46,874 bases of DNA. Source: a virus. The notes under the pieces were generated by a model, which saw nothing but the letters and a program-made list of their open reading frames with translations, made no database searches and had not been told where the DNA came from. The translations under genes and the position numbers were made by a program. Below, one piece after another: positions 13,868 through 36,158 of the stretch. Location of the stretch: positions 1 to 46,874 of the IMG/VR virus record IMGVR_UViG_3300027631_000037. One strand, 5' to 3'. Positions within the stretch are counted from its first letter, which is position 1. Each line of letters opens with the position of its first letter.

Positions 13868-16800
13868 ATGGAGTTCAAAGGTAAAAGTCCTAACGGGTTA
13901 AATCAAAATAGTATTAATAGTGTATCACTTTTTGTAAGTGGTTCACCTATTTTAAATGCATCATCCGAATCTGTAAATGTTGTAGGAAACTTTACGGCAT
14001 CCGCTGTTCAATCAAATGTAATTGGTACATCAAATAGTTCACCATTACAAATAAAAGCAAATACACAAATAACTGGTTCAGTACATGTAACAACATTTGT
14101 ATCGGCATCAACTTTGTATGGAACTTTAGTAGGAGATGGTAGTGGAATAACAAATATCCCAGCATCATCAATCGGAGATATTGATAGAATAAAATCAGGT
14201 TCAGCTCAAGCAATTATATCACCAAATAAAGGATTTGAGATTAATACCAAAACTTCTGTGGCTGGTAATTTAGCAGTTACTGGTTCTGTGAATATAACAA
14301 CTAATTTAAATGTTGCTGGTAGAATAACATCAACTGAATTAGTTACTGAATTTATTTCATCTTCAATAATTTATACAACTGGTTCATCTAAATTTGGTGA
14401 CCAATTAACTGATAAGCAAGAATTTACTGGTAGTGTTGCTATAACGGGAAGTATTTTACTATCTGGTAGTTTGAAAGTTGGAAATTTTCCAAACGATTCA
14501 ACAACCGATGAAGTTTTAGTATATAATACTGTAACTGGTATAGTTGGTAGAAAATACGCAGCAGCATCATCAGGAACATCAGGAACATCTGGTACAACGG
14601 GTTCAGCTGGTACATCCGGTACAACGGGTTCATCGGGAACTTCTGGAACTTCAGGATCGTCTGGTAGTGGTGGTACATCTGGTTCATCAGGAACATCTGG
14701 TTCATCGGGAACTTCTGGTTCATCTGGAACTTCTGGAAGTAGTGGTACAACTGGTTCATCGGGAACAACCGGAAGTGATGGTACTAGTGGTAGTGGTGGT
14801 TCATCAGGAACATCAGGAACTTCTGGCTCATCTGGAAGTGGAGGTACAACAGGTACATCGGGCTCATCTGGCACTGATGGTTCAACTGGTACTGGTGGTA
14901 CTTCGGGAACTTCTGGTTCATCCGGAACTGCTGGAAGTAGTGGTACAACGGGTTCGAGTGGTACAACGGGTTCTGCTGGTACGTCTGGTGTAAGTGGTAC
15001 GAATGGAACATCTGGTTCATCGGGAACTTCTGGTACAAATGGTTCAACTGGTAGTGGTGGTACATCGGGACTTAGTGGAGCAGCAGCAACTGCTGGTACG
15101 TCTGGCTCTAGCGGTACATCTGGTAGTAGTGGTACATCCGGTACAACGGGTTCGGCTGGTACATCCGGTATAACTGGAGCTGGTGGAGGTAGTGGTTCAT
15201 CTGGAAGTGGAGGTACTTCAGGAACTTCTGGAAGTAGTGGTACGGCTGGTACATCGGGAACTTCTGGTAGTGGGGGTTCGGCTGGTACAACGGGTACAGC
15301 TGGTTCTTCAGGTACTATGGGTACATCTGGAAGTGGAGGTAGTACGGGTACATCTGGAAGTGGTGGAACAACAGGTACAAGCGGTAGTGGAGGTACAACA
15401 GGTACAAGTGGTAGTGGTGGAACGTCTGGCACAAGTGGTAGTGGTGGAACGTCTGGATTAAATGGTACGAATGGTACATCAGGATCGTCTGGGTTAACTG
15501 GAACGGCTGGAAGTAGTGGTACATCAGGAACATCTGGTACAACCGGAACGTCTGGGTCAGCTGGTACATCAGGTACTGCTGGTACGGCGGGAAGTAGTGG
15601 TACAACAGGAACGTCTGGTTCGGCTGGAACATCAGGTACGGCAGGTACTGCTGGAAGTAGTGGTACGACTGGAACGTCTGGGTCAGCTGGAACATCTGGT
15701 TCAGCTGGTAGTGCTGGAACATCGGGAACATCTGGTTCATCTGGAAGTGGAGGAACGGCTGGAACATCTGGGTCAGCTGGTACATCAGGTTCGGCTGGAA
15801 CTTCTGGAAGTGGAGGAACGGCAGGTACATCAGGAACGTCTGGCACATCAGGTTCTACGGGTACAGCTGGTAGTGGTGGCACATCAGGAACTTCTGGAAG
15901 TAGTGGTACATCAGGTTCATCGGGAACACGTGGTACAAGCGGTACTGGGGGTACATCGGGATTATTAGCATTAACTGGTACAACTGATAATGGTGTAATT
16001 ACATTAAACGGAAGTGCACCAAACGGAACTGTTGAATCAAATTTAACTTTTAATGGTAGTACATTGACAGTAACTGGAGATGCTACAATTAGTGGTAACT
16101 TAACTGTTAGTGGTACAACAACATATATTAATACAACAACTCTTAACGTAGGTGATAATATTATTACACTTAATGCAGATATTGGCGCAGCAACAACACC
16201 ATCTGAAAATGCTGGTATAGAAGTTAAGAGAGGTAATGCAGCAACAAAAACATTTTATTGGGAAGAAGCAAATGATAGATGGTATGCAGAAGATGGTCTT
16301 TATGTAGGTGGTAATGTGGTTCTTAGTGGCACGGTTGATACTGGGCAAGGAGCAACTGAAGTACATTTAATGAACCAAAATATTCGTACTACGGATGCAG
16401 TAACATTTGCTACGGTTGATACTGGGCAAGGAGCAAACGAATTATACGCAATGAACCAAAACGTAAGAACTACGGATGCGGTTACATTTACTACGGTTGA
16501 TACTGGACAAGGTGCTAATGAACTTTACGCAATGAACCAAAACGTAAGAACTACGGATGCGGTTACATTTGCTACGGTTGATACTGGACAAGGTGCAAAC
16601 GAATTGTACGCAATGAATCAGAATGTTCGCACAACTGATGCTGTTACATTTGCTACGGTAGATACTGGACAAGGAGCAACCGAAGTTCACTTAATGAATC
16701 AGAATTTAAGAACAATCGATTCTCCAACATTCGCAACATTAAATACGGGACAAGGTGCAAACGAATTGTACGCAATGGACCAAAATGTTCGTTCTACTGA

Positions 16801-19800
16801 TTCACCCACATTTGCAACGGTAAATACGGGACAAGGAGCAAATGAATTGTACGCAATGGACCAAAATGTTCGTACAACCGATTCGGTAACATTTGCAAAT
16901 GTAACTTCAAATTTAACTGGTACTGCTGATAGAGCTGAAGCAGTTGATTCAAACGATACTCGTGCTACCAATGATACTCCATCATCTAGAGGAGCTGGTG
17001 TTTATTTTGATTTTAAACAAAACTCCACAAACGGATTAAGTGATGGTGGTACATATAATGGCCAAATGACTTGGAGAAGTTATGGTGGTAGTACCGATTT
17101 AAGTGGAGGACAACCAATGCAAATAGGATACACCGCTAATGGTAATCTTTGGACTAGAATGGGTACTGGTGCTAGTACTTGGGATAGTTGGAAAAAAATA
17201 TTAAATGAAACTAATTTTACATCATACGCACTACCACTAACAGGAGGAACACTTACGGGATATTTGTATATAAGAAAAACAGACCCAACAATATTCTTTC
17301 AAGATACAGACCATCGTTCAGCAATGATTCATGTAAACTCTAATATATTTTATGTATTAAGAGGAAATGGAACGGATAGTACAACTTGGGCAACTTCAAA
17401 TGGATATTGGCCAATGGAGTTGTATTTGGAAAATAACGCAGCAACTTTTGGTGGTACTGGTACTTTTATTGGTAGTGTTACTGCGGATTCATTTATTGAT
17501 AGAAACGATACGGCATATTTTGTAAATCCAAGAAGTAATTCTAGATTAAGTGGACTTCGTTTAGATGGAGTGGATAATGAAGCATCTGGTACTGATGCGA
17601 TTCTTTGGATTAACAAACCAAATAACAATGACTGGGGCATGATTGTTACCGGTGATTTGGATTATGGTATTGATTTAAGAATGGCAGCAAGTTCAACTTA
17701 CGCTTTTAGAATTACAGGAGGTGGTTCGGAAAGATTTAGAGTGAATGGAGCAGGTTCGGCATACGCATCAAACTTATTCCAAGCACCATCTATAAACGCA
17801 ACATATTATAATGATGAAGGTGGTACTTTTGCATTTAGAATAGGTAGTGGTACTGGTAATACAAGACATATTAACTTAGGTAATAGTACATCAGACCCAT
17901 CGGCAGTTGGTTCATCTACTGGTATATCTTCTGGACAAAGAAGCGATGGCCAACCATATTATTTATTATATGTAAAATCTCCATATAATAATGGATATGC
18001 AACTTATACAAGATTATCTGTTGGGTGGCATACTGGTTTGGAATTAGGTGGTAATCAATCATATGGTGGTACTAGAATTATGAACGATTCGCCTGGTGTA
18101 TCAACTACGGAATTGATGAGTATTGGTGCAGGTGATTCACATGTTAGAATTACAAACAATTTATATGTACCAATTGTATATGATAGAGATAGTACTTCAT
18201 ATTGGACAAACCCTGCTGGAGATTCTCAATTTAGTAATATAGAACTTGATGGTGTTTTATGGTCTAGAAATCACTATGGTAGAATTTATTTAGGAGGTAA
18301 CTTACATATAGATTCATACTCACATAGTATTTATCACAATTATTATACAAACAATCCAATACGAAACTATGGACATAACTATTTTAATGGATATGACCAT
18401 TATGATGTTTCAATTGGATATGCATATAGTTCGTATAGAGCACCATATTTTTATGATGTATATGATACTGCATATTATATAAATGCAAATGATAGTTCTA
18501 GATTATGGTATTTGGGAATTGGATATGAATCTCCTGAAAAAAGATTACATGTTACAGGAGACCACGGTTCAACAGCTATTAGATTAACTCTACCAGCAGC
18601 TTACAATGGAACTGGTCAAAGAGTTAGTATGCAGTGGTGGATATCCGAACCAGGTAATACTTGGAATGGTGCAGGATTTGGATACAATGTTGATAATAAC
18701 TTAAATAGTGGTACAAATACATACTATTGGGGTAGACCAAATACTAACTACGGACAAGCATATATAAGATTCTCGGAAGGTGGTGATATGTATTTTTATA
18801 ATACGAATACATCTGGTACACGTGTTACTAATTTGGAAATGTATCCAAATAATACGGTATATGCAAATAACTACTTAACTGGCGGTAACTCATTAAGAGC
18901 ACCAATATTCTACGATAACCAAGATACCGCATATTATGCTGACCCTAATGGTACATCTCACTTTAGTTCAATGTATATTTACAACGTTTATTATAGAGGT
19001 GATGGTAACTACGGAGCAATTGGTACAAACACATATAGAGATACTGTAAACTCTGGATATGATTCTGACCCATTAGAGTTAGTTTATTATAGAGGATATC
19101 CGGGTGTTAGAATTGGACCTGGTGGTGGTAATCGTTCATTAACAGCTGGTGACATTTATTCAAACGCATGGTATAGACAAAATACTTCAAATGGTTTCTA
19201 TTGGGAGCCGTATGGTAGAGGGTTCTTCTCACCTGAAGGTGGTGGTAACTCGTATGGCCACGTCACAACTTATGGTGGTGGTAGAAACGGATGGTATGGC
19301 TGGGGTATAGCTAGTACGCATTGTTTAATGAGTACTACTGGTGATAACGTTGGTTTGCATGATAATAGATATAGCTGGATTTGGTATTGGGATGGTGGAG
19401 CATTTAACGTATATAGAGGATATACTTATTCAGTAGGTTCGATGAGAACTCCCATATTCTACGATTCAAATAATACGGGATATTATATTGATGGAGATAA
19501 TACCTCTAGTTTAAACGCATTACATACAAATAACCATTATATTAGAGGTGGTTATATGTTGTATTCAGACCCTGGTGGATGGACTGGTGAATATTATAAA
19601 ATCCAATGGCATAGTTCGCATATGTATTTCCAAAGACAACAATGGGGATACTTTATATTCAGAAATCCAAATGGTAGTGAAGGAGCTTATATAAATGATA
19701 ACAACCTTTGGTTAGCATATTTGGGATGGATGAGTAATAACGTAAATCAAAGTGTAAGAACCGATGGTTCACCTACATTTAATGAGGTTTATGCAAACGG

Positions 19801-20650
19801 ATGGTTTAGAAACCAAGGTGGTGGTGGATTATATAGCCAATCATATGGAGGTCATAGTAGAACAAACTTATCATCATCATATGGATGTTGGGAAACGTGG
19901 GGATATTATAGAGGTGGATATGGTGGTATGTTGTGTCATGACCCATCTGGATATTATAATAACCTAATGTTTGAAAGAGGTAATGGTGGTATCTATGTAC
20001 AAAATCGTAATGGGTGGAGTTTCTATTATAGTGCAGATAACAGTTGTGCATCCGCAGCAGATTCAACGACATATGGATTTATTAGATTTAACGTTCAAGG
20101 TTCTGTAAGATTCCGTCAGTTTATTAATTTGAACTATAACGCAGATGGTAACATCGACCAAAATAATGGATTTGGTATTTACTATCGTTCTTCTGGTGGA
20201 TACAATACTGTAATGCAAACCGATGGATACCAATCAATTTATATGTTGAATGGTGGTGGTTCTTATGGTGGAGTGGTTTTATATCCTTACTACTATGGAT
20301 GGAGTGGTTATTCGGATGCTAATGTTAAAAATATACTTGGTGTAGTTACTGGTGTGCTTGATAAGGTAGATTCTTTAACACCTATATATTATACATATAA
20401 AATGGATTGTTTAGATCCTGAGTATGTAGAAGATACTAATATCAAAATGGGATTCACTGCACAAAATGTTCAGAGTGTTTTCCCTGAATTGGTAAGAACG
20501 GATGAAAAAAGTGGATTATTAACACTTGCAATGGATTCTTTGATTCCTGTATTGGTTCAATCGGTGAAAGAATTAAGAAATGAAATTAATTTCTTAAAAG
20601 CACAAAACGAATATTTATTAGAGAGAATAGAAAATTTAGAAAATAGTTAA
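13868..20650 (+). CDS. Giant tail fibre 2 with C-terminal S74 intramolecular chaperone
   Basis: 2260 residues. Residues ~1-230 share shaft modules with fibre 1, including the SSSIIY..GS.KFGD..TD.QEFTGSV segment. Residues ~234-698 form a Gly-X-Y tract without NGTFFG interruptions. A TTDNGVITLNG module then matches the tip module of fibre 1. Seven 27-residue repeats (DTGQGANELYAMNQNVRTTD) span nt 16331-16897. A region resembling pyocin-knob-type tail domains ends in WDSWKKIL. The large Tyr/Gly/Asn-rich receptor-binding part contains five copies of a YD..DT.YY..P...S motif. The last ~112 residues are a Peptidase_S74-type chaperone: the SDANVK segment gives Ser2149 and Lys2154, the expected self-cleavage Ser and +5 Lys, followed by IKMGFTAQNVQSVFPELV and a coiled-coil end. 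This domain is known to fold trimeric fibres and then cut itself off. Confidence 0.9.
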   Translation: MEFKGKSPNGLNQNSINSVSLFVSGSPILNASSESVNVVGNFTASAVQSNVIGTSNSSPLQIKANTQITGSVHVTTFVSASTLYGTLVGDGSGITNIPASSIGDIDRIKSGSAQAIISPNKGFEINTKTSVAGNLAVTGSVNITTNLNVAGRITSTELVTEFISSSIIYTTGSSKFGDQLTDKQEFTGSVAITGSILLSGSLKVGNFPNDSTTDEVLVYNTVTGIVGRKYAAASSGTSGTSGTTGSAGTSGTTGSSGTSGTSGSSGSGGTSGSSGTSGSSGTSGSSGTSGSSGTTGSSGTTGSDGTSGSGGSSGTSGTSGSSGSGGTTGTSGSSGTDGSTGTGGTSGTSGSSGTAGSSGTTGSSGTTGSAGTSGVSGTNGTSGSSGTSGTNGSTGSGGTSGLSGAAATAGTSGSSGTSGSSGTSGTTGSAGTSGITGAGGGSGSSGSGGTSGTSGSSGTAGTSGTSGSGGSAGTTGTAGSSGTMGTSGSGGSTGTSGSGGTTGTSGSGGTTGTSGSGGTSGTSGSGGTSGLNGTNGTSGSSGLTGTAGSSGTSGTSGTTGTSGSAGTSGTAGTAGSSGTTGTSGSAGTSGTAGTAGSSGTTGTSGSAGTSGSAGSAGTSGTSGSSGSGGTAGTSGSAGTSGSAGTSGSGGTAGTSGTSGTSGSTGTAGSGGTSGTSGSSGTSGSSGTRGTSGTGGTSGLLALTGTTDNGVITLNGSAPNGTVESNLTFNGSTLTVTGDATISGNLTVSGTTTYINTTTLNVGDNIITLNADIGAATTPSENAGIEVKRGNAATKTFYWEEANDRWYAEDGLYVGGNVVLSGTVDTGQGATEVHLMNQNIRTTDAVTFATVDTGQGANELYAMNQNVRTTDAVTFTTVDTGQGANELYAMNQNVRTTDAVTFATVDTGQGANELYAMNQNVRTTDAVTFATVDTGQGATEVHLMNQNLRTIDSPTFATLNTGQGANELYAMDQNVRSTDSPTFATVNTGQGANELYAMDQNVRTTDSVTFANVTSNLTGTADRAEAVDSNDTRATNDTPSSRGAGVYFDFKQNSTNGLSDGGTYNGQMTWRSYGGSTDLSGGQPMQIGYTANGNLWTRMGTGASTWDSWKKILNETNFTSYALPLTGGTLTGYLYIRKTDPTIFFQDTDHRSAMIHVNSNIFYVLRGNGTDSTTWATSNGYWPMELYLENNAATFGGTGTFIGSVTADSFIDRNDTAYFVNPRSNSRLSGLRLDGVDNEASGTDAILWINKPNNNDWGMIVTGDLDYGIDLRMAASSTYAFRITGGGSERFRVNGAGSAYASNLFQAPSINATYYNDEGGTFAFRIGSGTGNTRHINLGNSTSDPSAVGSSTGISSGQRSDGQPYYLLYVKSPYNNGYATYTRLSVGWHTGLELGGNQSYGGTRIMNDSPGVSTTELMSIGAGDSHVRITNNLYVPIVYDRDSTSYWTNPAGDSQFSNIELDGVLWSRNHYGRIYLGGNLHIDSYSHSIYHNYYTNNPIRNYGHNYFNGYDHYDVSIGYAYSSYRAPYFYDVYDTAYYINANDSSRLWYLGIGYESPEKRLHVTGDHGSTAIRLTLPAAYNGTGQRVSMQWWISEPGNTWNGAGFGYNVDNNLNSGTNTYYWGRPNTNYGQAYIRFSEGGDMYFYNTNTSGTRVTNLEMYPNNTVYANNYLTGGNSLRAPIFYDNQDTAYYADPNGTSHFSSMYIYNVYYRGDGNYGAIGTNTYRDTVNSGYDSDPLELVYYRGYPGVRIGPGGGNRSLTAGDIYSNAWYRQNTSNGFYWEPYGRGFFSPEGGGNSYGHVTTYGGGRNGWYGWGIASTHCLMSTTGDNVGLHDNRYSWIWYWDGGAFNVYRGYTYSVGSMRTPIFYDSNNTGYYIDGDNTSSLNALHTNNHYIRGGYMLYSDPGGWTGEYYKIQWHSSHMYFQRQQWGYFIFRNPNGSEGAYINDNNLWLAYLGWMSNNVNQSVRTDGSPTFNEVYANGWFRNQGGGGLYSQSYGGHSRTNLSSSYGCWETWGYYRGGYGGMLCHDPSGYYNNLMFERGNGGIYVQNRNGWSFYYSADNSCASAADSTTYGFIRFNVQGSVRFRQFINLNYNADGNIDQNNGFGIYYRSSGGYNTVMQTDGYQSIYMLNGGGSYGGVVLYPYYYGWSGYSDANVKNILGVVTGVLDKVDSLTPIYYTYKMDCLDPEYVEDTNIKMGFTAQNVQSVFPELVRTDEKSGLLTLAMDSLIPVLVQSVKELRNEINFLKAQNEYLLERIENLENS
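14566..15960 (+). repeat. Gly-X-Y low-complexity tract of fibre 2
   Basis: About 1.4 kb coding for Gly at every third residue, with more GSGG, GTTG and GSAG variation than fibre 1 and no NGTFFG breaks. It is flanked by modules homologous to those of fibre 1. Confidence 0.9.
16331..16897 (+). repeat. Seven tandem 81-bp repeats in fibre 2
   Basis: Seven in-frame 81-bp units encoding T[VL][DN]TGQGA[NT]E[LV] followed by [YH][AL]M[ND]QN. Units 2-4 are nearly identical, while units 1 and 5 carry ATEVHL in place of ANELYA. The period is exactly 27 codons across the array. Confidence 0.9.
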
Positions 20651-24521: not shown

Positions 24522-25025
24522 ATGGCAGACGAATTAATACTACCCTACGATAAGATGATTTTCACGCAGTTCGAACCAAAAATGAAGAACCGCTACTACA
24601 TGGAAATGACAGATGTAGGTATCCCAGCATTTATGGTAAAGACAGCAAATAGACCAAACATTCAATTTGAGACTGTTACCATCGACCATATCAACGTACA
24701 AAGAAAACTAAAAGGTAAAGGTACGTGGCAAGATATGAACATCACTTTATATGACCCAATTGTACCATCAGCGGCACAATTAGTAATGGAGTGGATTCGT
24801 CTATCACATGAATCAATTACTGGTAGAGACGGATATGCAGAATTCTACAAAAAGACTATTAACTTTTATATGTTAGGTCCTGTTGGAGATAAGATTGAAA
24901 AATGGACTTTACATGGTGCATTTATCTCTCAAGCAAACTTTAACGAAGTAGATTTTAGTAATGCAAACGAACCAGCAACAATTGATTTAACATTAACTTA
25001 CGATTACGCTGTTCTTGAATACTAA
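24522..25025 (+). CDS. gp19: Tail tube protein
   Basis: 167 residues, close to the 163 of T4 gp19. The pattern FEPKMKNRYYMEM...IPAFMVKTANRP, then W.DMNITLYDPIVPSAAQLVMEW, and an ending WTLHGAFISQANFNEVDFSN with ATIDLTLTYDYAVLEY is typical of T4-like tube subunits. It forms the inner hollow tube through which DNA passes. It lies right after the sheath and is followed by a strong terminator, so it can be transcribed alone or with the sheath. Confidence 0.95.
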   Translation: MADELILPYDKMIFTQFEPKMKNRYYMEMTDVGIPAFMVKTANRPNIQFETVTIDHINVQRKLKGKGTWQDMNITLYDPIVPSAAQLVMEWIRLSHESITGRDGYAEFYKKTINFYMLGPVGDKIEKWTLHGAFISQANFNEVDFSNANEPATIDLTLTYDYAVLEY

Positions 25026-25136: not shown

Positions 25137-25901
25137 ATGACAGAAAAACAATTTGATTTCCCAACCGAAGTGTTGGATTTACCATCTAAAGGTAAATTAT
25201 ATCCAAAAGATAATCCATTATCATCTGGTAGAATCACAATTAAGTATATGACTGCAAAAGAGGAAGATATTCTTTCTTCTACAAATCTAATTAAAAAAGG
25301 TATTGTATTAGATAAATTATTTGAATCTATTATAGTTGATGATGTAAATATCAATGATATATTAGTTGGTGATAAAAACGCTATTATATTAGCAACTCGT
25401 CTATTGGGATATGGTGCGGATTATAATGTATCATTTTATTCATCTAAAGCAGGTAAAACATTAGAAGCAACAGTAGATTTATCTAAAGTAGCTACTAAAG
25501 AGGTAGATTTATCTTCATTTGAGTATAAAAATGAATTTGAATTTGTTACTCCGGTAGGTAAAAATAAATTAACATTTAAATTACTTACACATGGTGATGA
25601 ATTATTAATTGATAAAGATATCACCGCATTAGAAAAATTAAATAAAGATACTTCATTTGAAATCACTACTCGTTTACGATATATGATTAAAAGTGTAGAT
25701 GGAAATTCTGATATTGGATTTATTGCAAAATTTATTAATAATTCATTTTTAGCTAGAGATAGTAAAGCATTTAGAGATTATGTAAAGACAATATCTCCTG
25801 ATATGAATATGAAATTTAGTTATACCCATGAAGATGGTGAGGTGGAGGAGGCACCTATCCCAATGGGTGTAGGCTTTTTTTGGCCTGGCGAGGAATCATA
25901 G
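25137..25901 (+). CDS. gp26: gp26-family baseplate/tape-measure chaperone protein
   Basis: 254 residues. The N-terminus FDFPTEVLDLPSKGKLYP, then KYMTAKEEDIL and GDKNAIILATRLLGYGADYNV, is the signature of the T4 baseplate protein family that includes gp26 (208 residues in T4). In T4, gp26 is needed for hub assembly. Here the gene sits between tube and tape measure, the position of tail assembly chaperones in many phages. The last codons contain a run of seven T (25875-25881). A shift there enters an open frame that continues to 26097, giving a protein of about 319 residues. The unit has a promoter-like motif in front and terminators on both sides. Confidence 0.85.
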   Translation: MTEKQFDFPTEVLDLPSKGKLYPKDNPLSSGRITIKYMTAKEEDILSSTNLIKKGIVLDKLFESIIVDDVNINDILVGDKNAIILATRLLGYGADYNVSFYSSKAGKTLEATVDLSKVATKEVDLSSFEYKNEFEFVTPVGKNKLTFKLLTHGDELLIDKDITALEKLNKDTSFEITTRLRYMIKSVDGNSDIGFIAKFINNSFLARDSKAFRDYVKTISPDMNMKFSYTHEDGEVEEAPIPMGVGFFWPGEES

Positions 25902-26097
25902 TGCATTACTTCACACTCAAATTTTTGAGATGGTGGAATATAGTAACGGATTCACTATTATGGAATTGTACAAAATGCCAACTTATTTGAGAACATTCTA
26001 CTATAATAAATTAGTGGAATCTAAGAAAAAGGAAAACGAAGAAGCTAAAAAATCAAATCAATCGGCAAACGCATCAAAGGTTAGGTTTAAGAGATAA
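25882..26097 (+). CDS. Probable frameshift-expressed extension of the gp26-family gene
   Basis: An open frame, +1 relative to the upstream gene, with 71 codons after the T7 run and stop TAA at 26095-26097. The product has a compact core, IFEMVEYSNGFTIMELYKM then PTYLRTFYYNKLVE, and a Lys/Glu-rich tail. The first ATG in frame is 25930, but conserved-looking residues (LLHTQIFE) lie upstream of it, no Shine-Dalgarno or A-rich leader precedes it, and the frame is open back to the slippery run (previous stop at 25870-25872). Alternatives are an independent gene from 25930 or a base miscounted in the T run. The terminator hairpin overlaps its stop codon, which supports this as a true gene end. Confidence 0.7.
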   Translation, partial: GLARNHSALLHTQIFEMVEYSNGFTIMELYKMPTYLRTFYYNKLVESKKKENEEAKKSNQSANASKVRFKR

Positions 26098-26120
26098 TTC
26101 TCTTATTCCTAACTTTTTTT
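26080..26120 (+). terminator. Intrinsic terminator after the gp26 unit
   Basis: Two-part stem: GTTAGG (26080-26085) with CCTAAC (26108-26113), and inside it AAGAGA (26089-26094) with TCTCTT (26099-26104) around a 4-base loop. T7 follows at 26114-26120. The stop codon of the extension lies in the loop. Confidence 0.85.
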
Positions 26121-26166: not shown

Positions 26167-26409
26167 ATGGGAAAATATAAAATAAAAAGACATCAATTAA
26201 AAGAATTCTTCGGGTTATTCAGCAAAAAAGCTACGCCTGCAAAACTTCAACAATTAATTGATAAAGACCCTACTTTACAAAGATTAAAGGCTGATGTTGA
26301 TAAAATGAATTCAAAATATAAGCCTGATATCGATAGACTTAAAGATGAAAAGCCTGAAATGTTTAAAATGTTTCAGAGTTGGGGTATGATACCAAAAGAT
26401 TACAACTAA
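26167..26409 (+). CDS. Small helical protein upstream of tape measure
   Basis: 80 residues, basic at the N-terminus (MGKYKIKRHQLKEFFGLFSKK) and predicted almost wholly helical, ending MFQSWGMIPKDYN. No known motif. It is 13 bp upstream of the tape measure and shares its promoter, so a role as tape-measure chaperone or hub component is plausible but unproven. Confidence 0.65.
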   Translation: MGKYKIKRHQLKEFFGLFSKKATPAKLQQLIDKDPTLQRLKADVDKMNSKYKPDIDRLKDEKPEMFKMFQSWGMIPKDYN

Positions 26410-26422
26410 CATATAGCAACTA

Positions 26423-28786
26423 ATGGCTAAGAAACTATCAGATAGTGAAGATGAAATTAGGTTAGGCCTTCTTAGAGAAATTGAAGAAACTAATCAACGT
26501 ATTGAGGAGCAAAATAAAAAGGCTGCGGTTGTTGGTGCGGAAGAACGTAAAAGACTTGAAAAAAGAATTGAGAAAGAGAAAGAAAAGGTAAAACTGTTAG
26601 GAAAGCAAGTAAAACCATTACAAGAGCAAAACAAATTAGCAGAAGAATATAACGATTTACAAGATACCCTACAAACATCTTATACTAAATTAGATATTGG
26701 AGCTAGAAAATTAATATCTACTAATAAAATAGGTGGTACTGCATTTGCATCTCTTGCGGCAGATATATTAGATATAAAAGATAAACAAGAAGGATTATCG
26801 GAAGATGAACTTAAAATTAATCAAAGAAAATTAGATGTATATACTAATTTATATACTTCAGTAACACAACAAGCGGAAGCAGCAGCTCAAACTAAAAATG
26901 AATTATTAGGTGTAACTGAGCAAGCTAGTAGAAGACTTCAGTTTGAAGAAAGTATAGCTGATTTATCTCCAAAAGAAAAAGCAAAATTAACCGATTTATT
27001 TAATTTAAAGGAAAATTTAATATCGCAACAGGAAAGGCTACAAAAAATACAAGAAGAAGCAGATGATTTATATCAAAGATTACCATCATTTCTTCAAGAT
27101 GCGGTAGACATGACTAAAAAATTAGCAAAAGGAATTTCAAGTGGTCTTGGTCCTATTGTAATAATGGGTGCACTATTTGCAGCAGCATTAGTATCTTTTA
27201 GTGAAATACAGGCAGCAAGTAAAAAGTTTAGAGAAGAAACTGGATTAACAAATTCACAAACAAAACAAATTCAAAAAGATGCACATAGTATTGCAGTTGA
27301 TTTTGCTAAATTGGGAGTAGATGCTGAAGTTGCATATGATAGTATTGCTGCATTTAAAAATGAATTTGGTGATAGTATTCCAATATCAAAAGCAGTAGCG
27401 GCTAACGTAGCTGTATTAAATAAAAACTTTGGAGTAGCTCAATCAGATGCAGCTGCAGTTAATATGGTTTTCCAAAGTATGGCAGGATTATCTGCAGAAA
27501 CTGCACAAAACGTATCACAGCAAGTGGCTGATATGGCTAATTTAGCTGGTGTAGCACCATCTAAAGTATTTAAAGATATTGCAGATTCGGCAGAGGGTAC
27601 ATATACATATTTTAAAGGTGATGTAACTCTTATTGCTAAACAAGCTATTGAAGCTAGACGATTAGGTACTACATTAAAGGATGTATTAAAAACAACTGAA
27701 GACCTTTTAGATTTTGAAAATGGTATTGAAAAGGAATTAGTTGCTGCAACATTTGTTGGTGGTCAATTTAATTTATCGCAAGCAAGAGCATTGGCATATG
27801 CAGGAAAGCATGTTGATGCACAAAAAGAAATATTAAAACAGGTTGAACGAAGTGGTAAATTTTCTGAGCAAGATTCATTTACTAAAAAGGTATTAGCTGA
27901 TGCAGCTGGTATGACGGTTGATGAGTTAAGTAAACAAATCCTTATGCAAGAAAAGCTTGGAAATCTTAGTGATGAGGAACAAAAGAAGATTTCTAAAGCT
28001 ATGGATGCTGGATTGGATATCACTAATATGAGTGAAGACCAATTAAAAGCAAAAACACAAGAATTGGCAAAACAAGAAGAAATAGCTGATAAGATAACTC
28101 AAATGGAAAATTCATTTAAAGGTATCGTTGCAGCTGTTGGTGAAGGATTGCTACCATTAATGGAGGCATTAGCACCAATAGTAACTACGTTGGGTAATAT
28201 ATTTGGAGGGATATTTGGGGCATTGAATTCAATACCAGGTCTATTTCCTGCTATAATTGGAGGATTGAGTGTAATGTATATTCTAAGTAAGAAAACCGCA
28301 TTATTAAAAATGAAAGATGCAATTGCTTCTATTTTTGCTGGTAACGCAAAGTTGGGAGCAATTGGTTTGATTGCAGCTGGTGCTGGTATAGCGGCATTAA
28401 TGTCTGCTTTGGGTAGTGCAAAAATTAGTGAAGCTGGGGATGTAATGTCACCTGCAAGAGGTAAAACTAGAGTATCAACTAAAGAGGGTGGGTTGTATGA
28501 ATTATCACCAAACGATGATTTAGTAGCAGCACCAAACGCTTTAGAAAAAATGAATAATAATCCAGCGGTATCACAATTAACAAATACATCTACAAAGAGT
28601 AGTAATAGTATTGGGGATAATACAATGGTTCAGATTTTAGTAAATGAAATGAAAGCACTAAGAGCCGATATGAGTAGTGGTAAGATTATGGCTAACACAT
28701 ATTTGGATGGACAAAAAGTTATAGCAGGTATTGTAACAGCTACCGAAAAGAGTAGTAGAAATAACTTTACTTACGGACAAAGATAA
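26423..28786 (+). CDS. Tail tape measure protein
   Basis: 787 residues. Residues ~1-90 are a charged coiled coil (EETNQRIEEQNKKAAVVGAEE...). A long hydrophobic stretch GPIVIMGALFAAALVSF lies at ~242-262, and further hydrophobic runs occur near 606-625 and 644-664 (LGAIGLIAAGAGIAALMSAL). The body is Ala-rich helical sequence. This mix, the length and the position after tube and chaperone genes are typical of tape measure proteins (gp29 in T4, 590 residues). It sets tail length and is released or injected at infection. The longer length predicts a longer tail than T4. The C-terminal ~120 residues may be cleaved or hub-bound, but no clear protease site is seen. Confidence 0.85.
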   Translation: MAKKLSDSEDEIRLGLLREIEETNQRIEEQNKKAAVVGAEERKRLEKRIEKEKEKVKLLGKQVKPLQEQNKLAEEYNDLQDTLQTSYTKLDIGARKLISTNKIGGTAFASLAADILDIKDKQEGLSEDELKINQRKLDVYTNLYTSVTQQAEAAAQTKNELLGVTEQASRRLQFEESIADLSPKEKAKLTDLFNLKENLISQQERLQKIQEEADDLYQRLPSFLQDAVDMTKKLAKGISSGLGPIVIMGALFAAALVSFSEIQAASKKFREETGLTNSQTKQIQKDAHSIAVDFAKLGVDAEVAYDSIAAFKNEFGDSIPISKAVAANVAVLNKNFGVAQSDAAAVNMVFQSMAGLSAETAQNVSQQVADMANLAGVAPSKVFKDIADSAEGTYTYFKGDVTLIAKQAIEARRLGTTLKDVLKTTEDLLDFENGIEKELVAATFVGGQFNLSQARALAYAGKHVDAQKEILKQVERSGKFSEQDSFTKKVLADAAGMTVDELSKQILMQEKLGNLSDEEQKKISKAMDAGLDITNMSEDQLKAKTQELAKQEEIADKITQMENSFKGIVAAVGEGLLPLMEALAPIVTTLGNIFGGIFGALNSIPGLFPAIIGGLSVMYILSKKTALLKMKDAIASIFAGNAKLGAIGLIAAGAGIAALMSALGSAKISEAGDVMSPARGKTRVSTKEGGLYELSPNDDLVAAPNALEKMNNNPAVSQLTNTSTKSSNSIGDNTMVQILVNEMKALRADMSSGKIMANTYLDGQKVIAGIVTATEKSSRNNFTYGQR

Positions 28787-35771: not shown

Positions 35772-36154
35772 GGGGGTGCCTTGGAATTGATTGTGATGAG
35801 AATAGTAGTATCACACGTAGACAGAAGTGCTAGATGTCTTTAAATCTGTACAAAACAATAACTGACGTAGAATTATCTACTTGGACCTACGAAGACTTAA
35901 TGTCTTTCATGGGTGCTGACTTAGCAATAGCTGCATAGTCCCTCCCGTATCACTCATGGGAATGAAATAGAAGTGAACAAAACGGAGTTTTACATATCGG
36001 CTCCCTAAATCTGATAAGTTGGTGGAATTGCTGAATTAACCATTCGGCCCCAATTATTTTGGAAAGTTAATAAGATTAAACTTTATCCTAAACGTGTAAT
36101 TCGTTGGTATTACGATTACTTTGCAAGACATGGGTTCGAATCCCATCACCTCCA
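35772..36154 (+). ncRNA. ssrA: Transfer-messenger RNA (tmRNA)
   Basis: A 383-nt one-piece tmRNA. The acceptor stem pairs GGGGGTG (35772-35778) with CACCTCC (36147-36153) over 7 bp, with a G.U at the third pair, the alanine identity signal. A74-type discriminator follows; CCA is not encoded. The T arm is ATGGG-TTCGAAT-CCCAT (36130-36146). The 5' part TTGGAATTGATTGTG fits the reduced D-loop of tmRNAs. Around the resume site the sequence TTTAAATCTGTA...AACT resembles Bacteroides tmRNA. The tag frame is read as starting at GAC 35864 and ends at TAG 35936-35938. tmRNA with SmpB rescues stalled ribosomes and tags products for proteolysis. It has its own promoter and terminator. Phage tmRNAs are known but uncommon. 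Confidence 0.95.
35864..35938 (+). other. Predicted tmRNA proteolysis-tag reading frame
   Basis: From GAC 35864 the frame has 24 codons, starting DVELSTW and ending GADLAIAA, then TAG. The resume codon was placed by aligning the flanking AAC..T.[AT]CTG[AG]C with my memory of Bacteroides tmRNA, where the tag starts GE. A later start is possible, which would shorten the tag. The end of the frame is firm. Confidence 0.65.
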
Positions 36155-36158
36155 CAAT

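What the first reader, a model, noticed from the sequence alone, without database searches (positions are those of the whole stretch)
25860..26097. Likely programmed +1 or -2 frameshift at a T7 run in the gp26-family gene
Seen: the last codons of the gp26-family gene read GGC TTT TTT TGG, with seven T at 25875-25881. A +1 or -2 shift enters a frame that runs 71 codons to TAA 26095-26097, right in a terminator. Both shifts let the Phe tRNA re-pair perfectly. The extension core begins before its first ATG (25930). Known: many tailed phages make two tail assembly chaperones by frameshifting, from genes lying between tube and tape measure, as here. Inference: the gp26 family plays that chaperone role in this phage and is frameshifted, which I am not aware of for T4 relatives.
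Basis: partly seen in the sequence, partly recalled or inferred. Interest (0 to 1): 0.75.

Follow-up and report, generated by a model that had tools for sequence, protein, structure and literature searches.

The report
Plus-one frameshift in phage tail chaperone
This phage gene, and nearly all of its roughly 200 relatives examined, appears to make a short and a longer tail-assembly helper protein by letting some ribosomes skip one base at a run of T; such two-form helpers are known, but a forward skip conserved across a whole branch of T4-like phages, next to cousins that slip backwards, seems to be new.

Summary
The gp26-family ORF (25137-25901) ends GGC TTT TTT TGG; the +1 frame runs 71 codons to TAA 26095-26097, inside a terminator hairpin. 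It is not a sequencing slip: of 196 related loci with both parts, 194 carry the same extension in the same +1 frame, entered at UUU-pyrimidine sites (T7 in about two thirds; TTTCTTT, TTCTTTT, TTTCTA and others in the rest). The extension frame is under purifying selection (pN/pS 0.23 against 1.4 and 1.8 in the other frames). All 145 distinct sites allow perfect +1 re-pairing of tRNA-Phe; 43 forbid it for -2. So this is most likely +1 programmed frameshifting.

The gene is a tail assembly chaperone (short TAC-N, long TAC-NC) near the tape measure gene. Sister cyanophages reach a homologous extension by -1 (80 of 81, at T_TTT_TTC). T4 has separate genes 26 and 51, and gp51's C-terminus matches the cyanophage extension.

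The chaperone role of gp26/gp51, and frameshifting in some T4-like phages, are published (Vladimirov 2022; text not held). The conserved +1 direction and the -1/+1 split within one family look new. There is no expression evidence.

The parts
25137..25901 (+). TAC-N: gp26-family tail assembly chaperone, short form, 254 aa plus stop
   Evidence: PHROG 150 E 4e-7, PF12322 E 4e-5 just under its cut-off; relatives at 70-95% identity
25875..25883 (+). Shift site TTT TTT TGG (T7 at 25875-25881); P-site tRNA-Phe on UUU slips +1, A-site codon UGG
   Evidence: Conserved in family, all 145 distinct sites fit +1
25882..26097 (+). TAC-C extension in the +1 frame, 71 codons plus TAA; with the core it makes the 319-aa TAC-NC
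   Evidence: 194/196 loci, pN/pS 0.23
25899..25901 (+). 0-frame stop TAG of the short form
25851..25870 (+). Hairpin just 5' of the site, only in the nearest relatives; role unknown
26076..26120 (+). Intrinsic terminator containing the extension stop
24522..25025 (+). Tail tube gene (gp19 type), expected partner of TAC-C
   Evidence: PHROG 4542 E 4e-30
26423..28786 (+). Tape measure homologue, expected partner of TAC-N
   Evidence: BLASTP E 4e-22 to annotated tape measure of phage immuto

Best explanation
The gene encodes the tail assembly chaperone of a T4-related myophage. Most ribosomes read TTT TTT TGG CCT in frame and stop a few codons later, giving the 254-aa TAC-N. A minority, paused with tRNA-Phe on UUU in the P site and a pyrimidine-starting codon (mostly the Trp codon UGG) next, slip forward one base (UUU to UUU or UUC) and make TAC-NC, 319 aa, with an added helical TAC-C domain. 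By analogy with lambda gpG/gpGT, TAC-N would coat the tape measure protein encoded just downstream and the few TAC-NC copies would recruit tail tube subunits. Shown: ORFs, frame, conservation, selection, site compatibility, gene position. Inferred: that ribosomes shift, how often, and the binding partners.
For: 194/196 loci have the extension in the +1 frame. pN/pS 0.23 in the extension frame against 1.43 and 1.84 in the others; window against L012 dN/dS 0.10. All 145 distinct sites allow perfect +1 re-pairing of tRNA-Phe on UUU, 43 do not for -2. UUU_Ynn is described as especially +1-prone in bacteria (Atkins 2016). Only 1-4 codons lie between the Pro codon and the 0-frame stop. No conserved start codon for the extension: its first ATG is more than 30 nt after the core stop, or absent, in 103 of 194. 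Tube upstream, tape measure downstream. Homologous extension reached by -1 in cyanophages. In L196/L201 the slip site is lost and the extension has its own ATG. Remote Streptococcus, Bacillus and Listeria phages also carry an extension in +1.
Against: No expression data. No conserved stimulatory RNA structure and no conserved Shine-Dalgarno-like element near the site, so efficiency is unknown. UUU_U is a weaker +1 site than CUU_U in the E. coli tests reviewed. In 69 of 194 loci an ATG does occur in the extension frame upstream of the core stop. The host ribosome is unknown.
Confidence: 0.9

Rival explanations
1. -2 frameshift at the T7 run, as in phage Mu.
For: The window's own T7 allows perfect -2 re-pairing, as do 102 of 145 distinct sites. 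-2 is used by Mu.
Against: 43 distinct sites (TTT CTT TGG, TTC TTT TGG, TTT CTA TGG, TTC TTT CGT and others) keep the same frame offset without perfect -2 pairing.
Confidence: 0.04
2. The extension is a separate gene started internally at a weak or non-ATG codon.
For: Annotators placed short separate ORFs there. L196 and L201 really have an own ATG just after the core stop.
Against: In the window the first ATG is at residue 17, inside the conserved domain. No start codon is conserved, and in many loci the extension frame opens only just upstream of the shift site, which is itself highly conserved. L196/L201 lost the shift site where they gained a start.
Confidence: 0.04
3. Transcriptional slippage by RNA polymerase at the T7 run.
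For: Seven T are a possible slippage template; a hairpin lies just 5' of it in the window clade.
Against: About 60 of 194 relatives have T7 broken into shorter runs, mostly of 3 or 4 T, and keep the frame.
Confidence: 0.015
4. Sequencing error or a decaying gene; really one ORF.
For: Homopolymer run in a metagenome contig.
Against: Same T count in many independent contigs, and the same frame offset in isolate genomes without a T7 (immuto TTTCTTT).
Confidence: 0.005

Closest known systems
T4-like tail assembly chaperones gp26/gp51 (Pfam T4_baseplate PF12322; Vladimirov, Gautam and Davidson 2022)
   Same: Same gene family; short and long forms; the cyanophage version of the long-form tail matches gp51 residues 200-246 (hhalign E 7e-7).
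   Different: T4 encodes the two forms as separate genes 26 and 51; here one gene with a +1 shift. The extension of the window clade matches gp51 only through the cyanophage intermediate.
Cyanophage (Kyanoviridae) gp26 with downstream 'hub assembly catalyst' ORF
   Same: Homologous core and extension (extension hhalign E 5e-7), poly-T site at the 3' end of the core.
   Different: 80 of 81 loci use the -1 frame at T_TTT_TTC; the window clade uses +1 at UUU_Y.
Lambda gpG/gpGT and the conserved tail-chaperone frameshift (Xu 2004; Atkins 2016)
   Same: Gene order, two products, shift near the 3' end; different phages use -1, -2 or (HSTV-2, very likely) +1.
   Different: No sequence relation shown; the HK97 chaperone 2ob9 appears among fold hits only at a non-significant E 0.94.
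UUU_Ynn +1 shift sites (Yersinia yopN-tyeA; influenza PA-X UCC_UUU_CGU)
   Same: tRNA-Phe slips UUU to UUY; Streptococcus phage GXN1 has TTC TTT CGT.
   Different: Different genes; PA-X is read by eukaryotic ribosomes.

Membership tests
Tail assembly chaperone with G/GT-type frameshift | Gene lies between tail tube and tape measure genes | tested here: met
   gp19-family tube upstream; tape measure homologue downstream with one 80-aa ORF between
Tail assembly chaperone with G/GT-type frameshift | Overlapping second frame entered near the 3' end, conserved in relatives | tested here: met
   194/196 loci, same offset; purifying selection
Tail assembly chaperone with G/GT-type frameshift | Both forms made, long form minor | not testable with these tools
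   needs proteomics or a reporter
Tail assembly chaperone with G/GT-type frameshift | Binds tape measure and tube; absent from virions | not testable with these tools
   needs binding assays and virion proteomics
PF12322 T4_baseplate (T4 gp26/gp51) | Profile match above the curated cut-off | tested here: inconclusive
   23.7 bits against 24.5; PHROG 150, which holds T4 gp26 and gp51, E 4e-7
T4-like chaperone with -1 shift (cyanophage type) | Extension in the -1 frame at T_TTT_TTC | tested here: not met
   Window clade is +1; cyanophages -1 in 80 of 81
UUU_Ynn +1 shift site | P-site UUU followed by a pyrimidine, tRNA-Phe re-pairs +1 | tested here: met
   145 of 145 distinct sites; LIS04 only at the first of its two TTT codons
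RF2-type +1 shift | Stop codon in the A site and Shine-Dalgarno-like element close upstream | tested here: not met
   A-site codon is mostly TGG; no conserved SD-like motif close to the site

The most novel reading that the evidence does not exclude
In one gp26-type chaperone family the recoding direction has switched between -1 and +1 while poly-T site and extension domain were kept, and elsewhere recoding was replaced by a separate gene (L196/L201) or by a second full-length gene (T4): four solutions to one short/long-protein ratio problem, with an apparently stimulator-free UUU_Y +1 site as the conserved solution in this branch of myophages.
Probability: 0.6. Interest if true: 0.6.

Novelty: new variant of a known kind. 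Interest (0 to 1): 0.48.

Why it matters
It corrects the annotation of a common gene: phage genomes now list a 'baseplate hub subunit' plus a stray hypothetical ORF, or miss the extension. It gives a large natural set of +1 sites (145 distinct) with matched -1 cousins, so what sets frameshift direction on a poly-T site can be tested by swapping a few bases. It also makes the T4 two-gene arrangement readable as one of several outcomes of the same need.

Tried and rejected
-2 shift: fails on 43 of 145 sites. Conserved stimulatory RNA: none (RNAalifold 0 pairs; downstream MFE z about -0.3). Upstream SD-like element: GGAG/GGGG tracts sit mostly 33-54 nt away, too far, and none is conserved near the site. 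Direct profile match of the window-clade extension to T4 gp51: not significant; only via the cyanophage extension (reversed-profile controls negative). tblastn of the extension alone against phage records: no hit. Fold search: PDB nothing significant; BFVD gave gp26-family and other phage proteins for the fusion and nothing significant for the extension alone. A joint alignment of cores and extensions misaligned the extensions and was not used.

Full report
OBSERVATION. The sequence is as described. The gp26-like ORF 25137-25901 reads ...GGC TTT TTT TGG CCT GGC GAG GAA TCA TAG, with seven T at 25875-25881. A +1 (equivalently -2) change of frame enters an open frame of 71 codons from 25882 to TAA 26095-26097. 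That stop lies inside a strong hairpin followed by seven T. The first ATG of this frame is at 25930.

RELATIVES. Searches with the window protein and with three distant relatives (Flavobacterium phage immuto, Microcystis phage Mel-JY01, uncultured LR756508) brought in about 200 loci. A profile of the extension, iterated, was placed in all three frames relative to the core. In 194 of 196 loci with both parts it lies in the +1 frame and adjoins or overlaps the core stop. Sites found: TTT TTT TGG CCT 130, TTT CTT TGG CCT 36, TTC TTT TGG CCT 14, TTT CTA TGG CCT 4, CTT TTT TGG CCT 3, TTT TTT TAC CCT 3, and four single variants. Over 83 thinned loci the 12 bases TTTTTTTGGCCT are 84-100% conserved per base. 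One to four codons lie between the Pro codon and the 0-frame stop.

SELECTION. Over 282 ungapped pairs, pN/pS is 0.23 in the extension frame and 1.43 and 1.84 in the two other frames; differences fall 27/16/57% on codon positions 1/2/3. The window against L012 gives dN/dS 0.10. The extension is therefore selected as protein. Its consensus is GLTxxYRxxLxxQIFxxVxHGKGGFxxxxVYNMPIWLRxF.

DIRECTION. At every one of 145 distinct sites a tRNA-Phe on UUU can re-pair one base forward on UUU or UUC. At 43 of them it cannot re-pair two bases back. [quoted passage not shown] 2016, PMC5009743). In the TTT CTT TGG group a CUU_U slip, as in RF2, is a second possible site. Transcriptional slippage is unlikely because the frame is kept where the T run is broken.

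STIMULATORS. No conserved RNA pairing was found, and no SD-like element close to the site. An 8-bp hairpin at 25851-25870 is kept in the tested near relatives L009, L012, L015, L016, L017 and L020, with one A-U to G-C pair change, but not beyond. A slow Trp codon in the A site is the simplest pausing element; this is inference.

RELATION TO T4 AND CYANOPHAGES. T4 gp26 (208 aa) and gp51 (249 aa) are both PF12322 members, and gp51 has about 48 residues beyond the shared domain. Cyanophage gp26 genes carry a 3' extension in the -1 frame at T_TTT_TTC-like sites in 80 of 81 loci. The cyanophage extension matches the window-clade extension (hhalign E 5e-7) and gp51 residues 200-246 (E 7e-7); reversed controls give 0.1-0.7. 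A direct match of the window-clade extension to gp51 was not significant. More remote Streptococcus GXN1, Bacillus SP-15 and Listeria LIS04 phages fit +1; Vibrio Bakedbeans, Agrobacterium Atu_ph07, Stenotrophomonas RAS14, Pseudomonas Cygsa01 and LR756511 fit -1. In a core tree the +1 rows cluster (3 label changes against 15 in shuffles; starred branches force at least 2) next to -1 rows. The two loci in which the extension has its own ATG (L196, L201) nest inside the +1 clade and have lost the slip site. The root and the long-branch rows are unsure, so the order of change is not settled.

FUNCTION. The gene sits between a gp19-type tube gene and a tape measure homologue, as tail chaperone genes do. 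AF2 models the core with high confidence (mostly pLDDT above 90) and the extension alone as a helical domain (mean pLDDT 83). The roles of the two forms are taken from lambda gpG/gpGT and are not tested here.

WHAT IS KNOWN. [quoted passage not shown] the paper is not in the library and its title was read in reference lists. A later paper states on its authority that some T4-like phages carry one short and one long gene instead of a frameshift (PRFect, PMC10885494), and another that poly-T sequences are -1 signals in T4-like chaperone genes (Adele, PMC12846349). From my memory, its abstract names genes 26 and 51 and says frameshifting is kept in several T4-like groups. So chaperone identity and frameshifting as such are known; the conserved +1 direction in this branch and the -1/+1 split were not found in the papers held, but the 2022 paper could contain part of it.

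VERDICT. A real, well-conserved programmed +1 frameshift in a tail assembly chaperone gene, by comparative evidence; a new variant of a known kind.

Noticed in passing
35772-36157 +: A tmRNA gene in the phage window: ARAGORN tag VNKTEFYISAP, Rfam RF00023 E 3.7e-28.
   Followed up: partly
1903, 1923, 13141, 21549, 22053, 25103, 26131, 37504, 42134, 42581, 44259 (+): TATTTATA motif (mostly ATATTTATA) 11-67 nt upstream of gene starts (17 in all on both strands against 10.9 expected); it also follows the extension in several relatives. Candidate late promoter; it is the reverse complement of the T4 late motif TATAAATA.
   Followed up: partly
13868-20650 +: 2260-aa protein with collagen-like repeats (best match SclB model, below its cut-off), probably a tail fibre.
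   Followed up: no
L196:3707-4040, L201:3713-4010: Chaperone extension as a separate gene with its own ATG just after the core stop; slip site lost.
   Followed up: yes
L208 (Synechococcus phage S-SCSM1) around 2687: Extension in the +1 frame although all 80 other cyanophage loci are -1 with similar sites; a real switch or a one-base sequence difference.
   Followed up: no
26167-26409 +: 80-aa ORF between extension and tape measure, found only in the nearest relatives L009-L018 and L020-L023; function unknown.
   Followed up: partly
25851-25870 +: Hairpin just 5' of the T7 run scores as an intrinsic-terminator-like site; it could also affect read-through in the window clade.
   Followed up: partly
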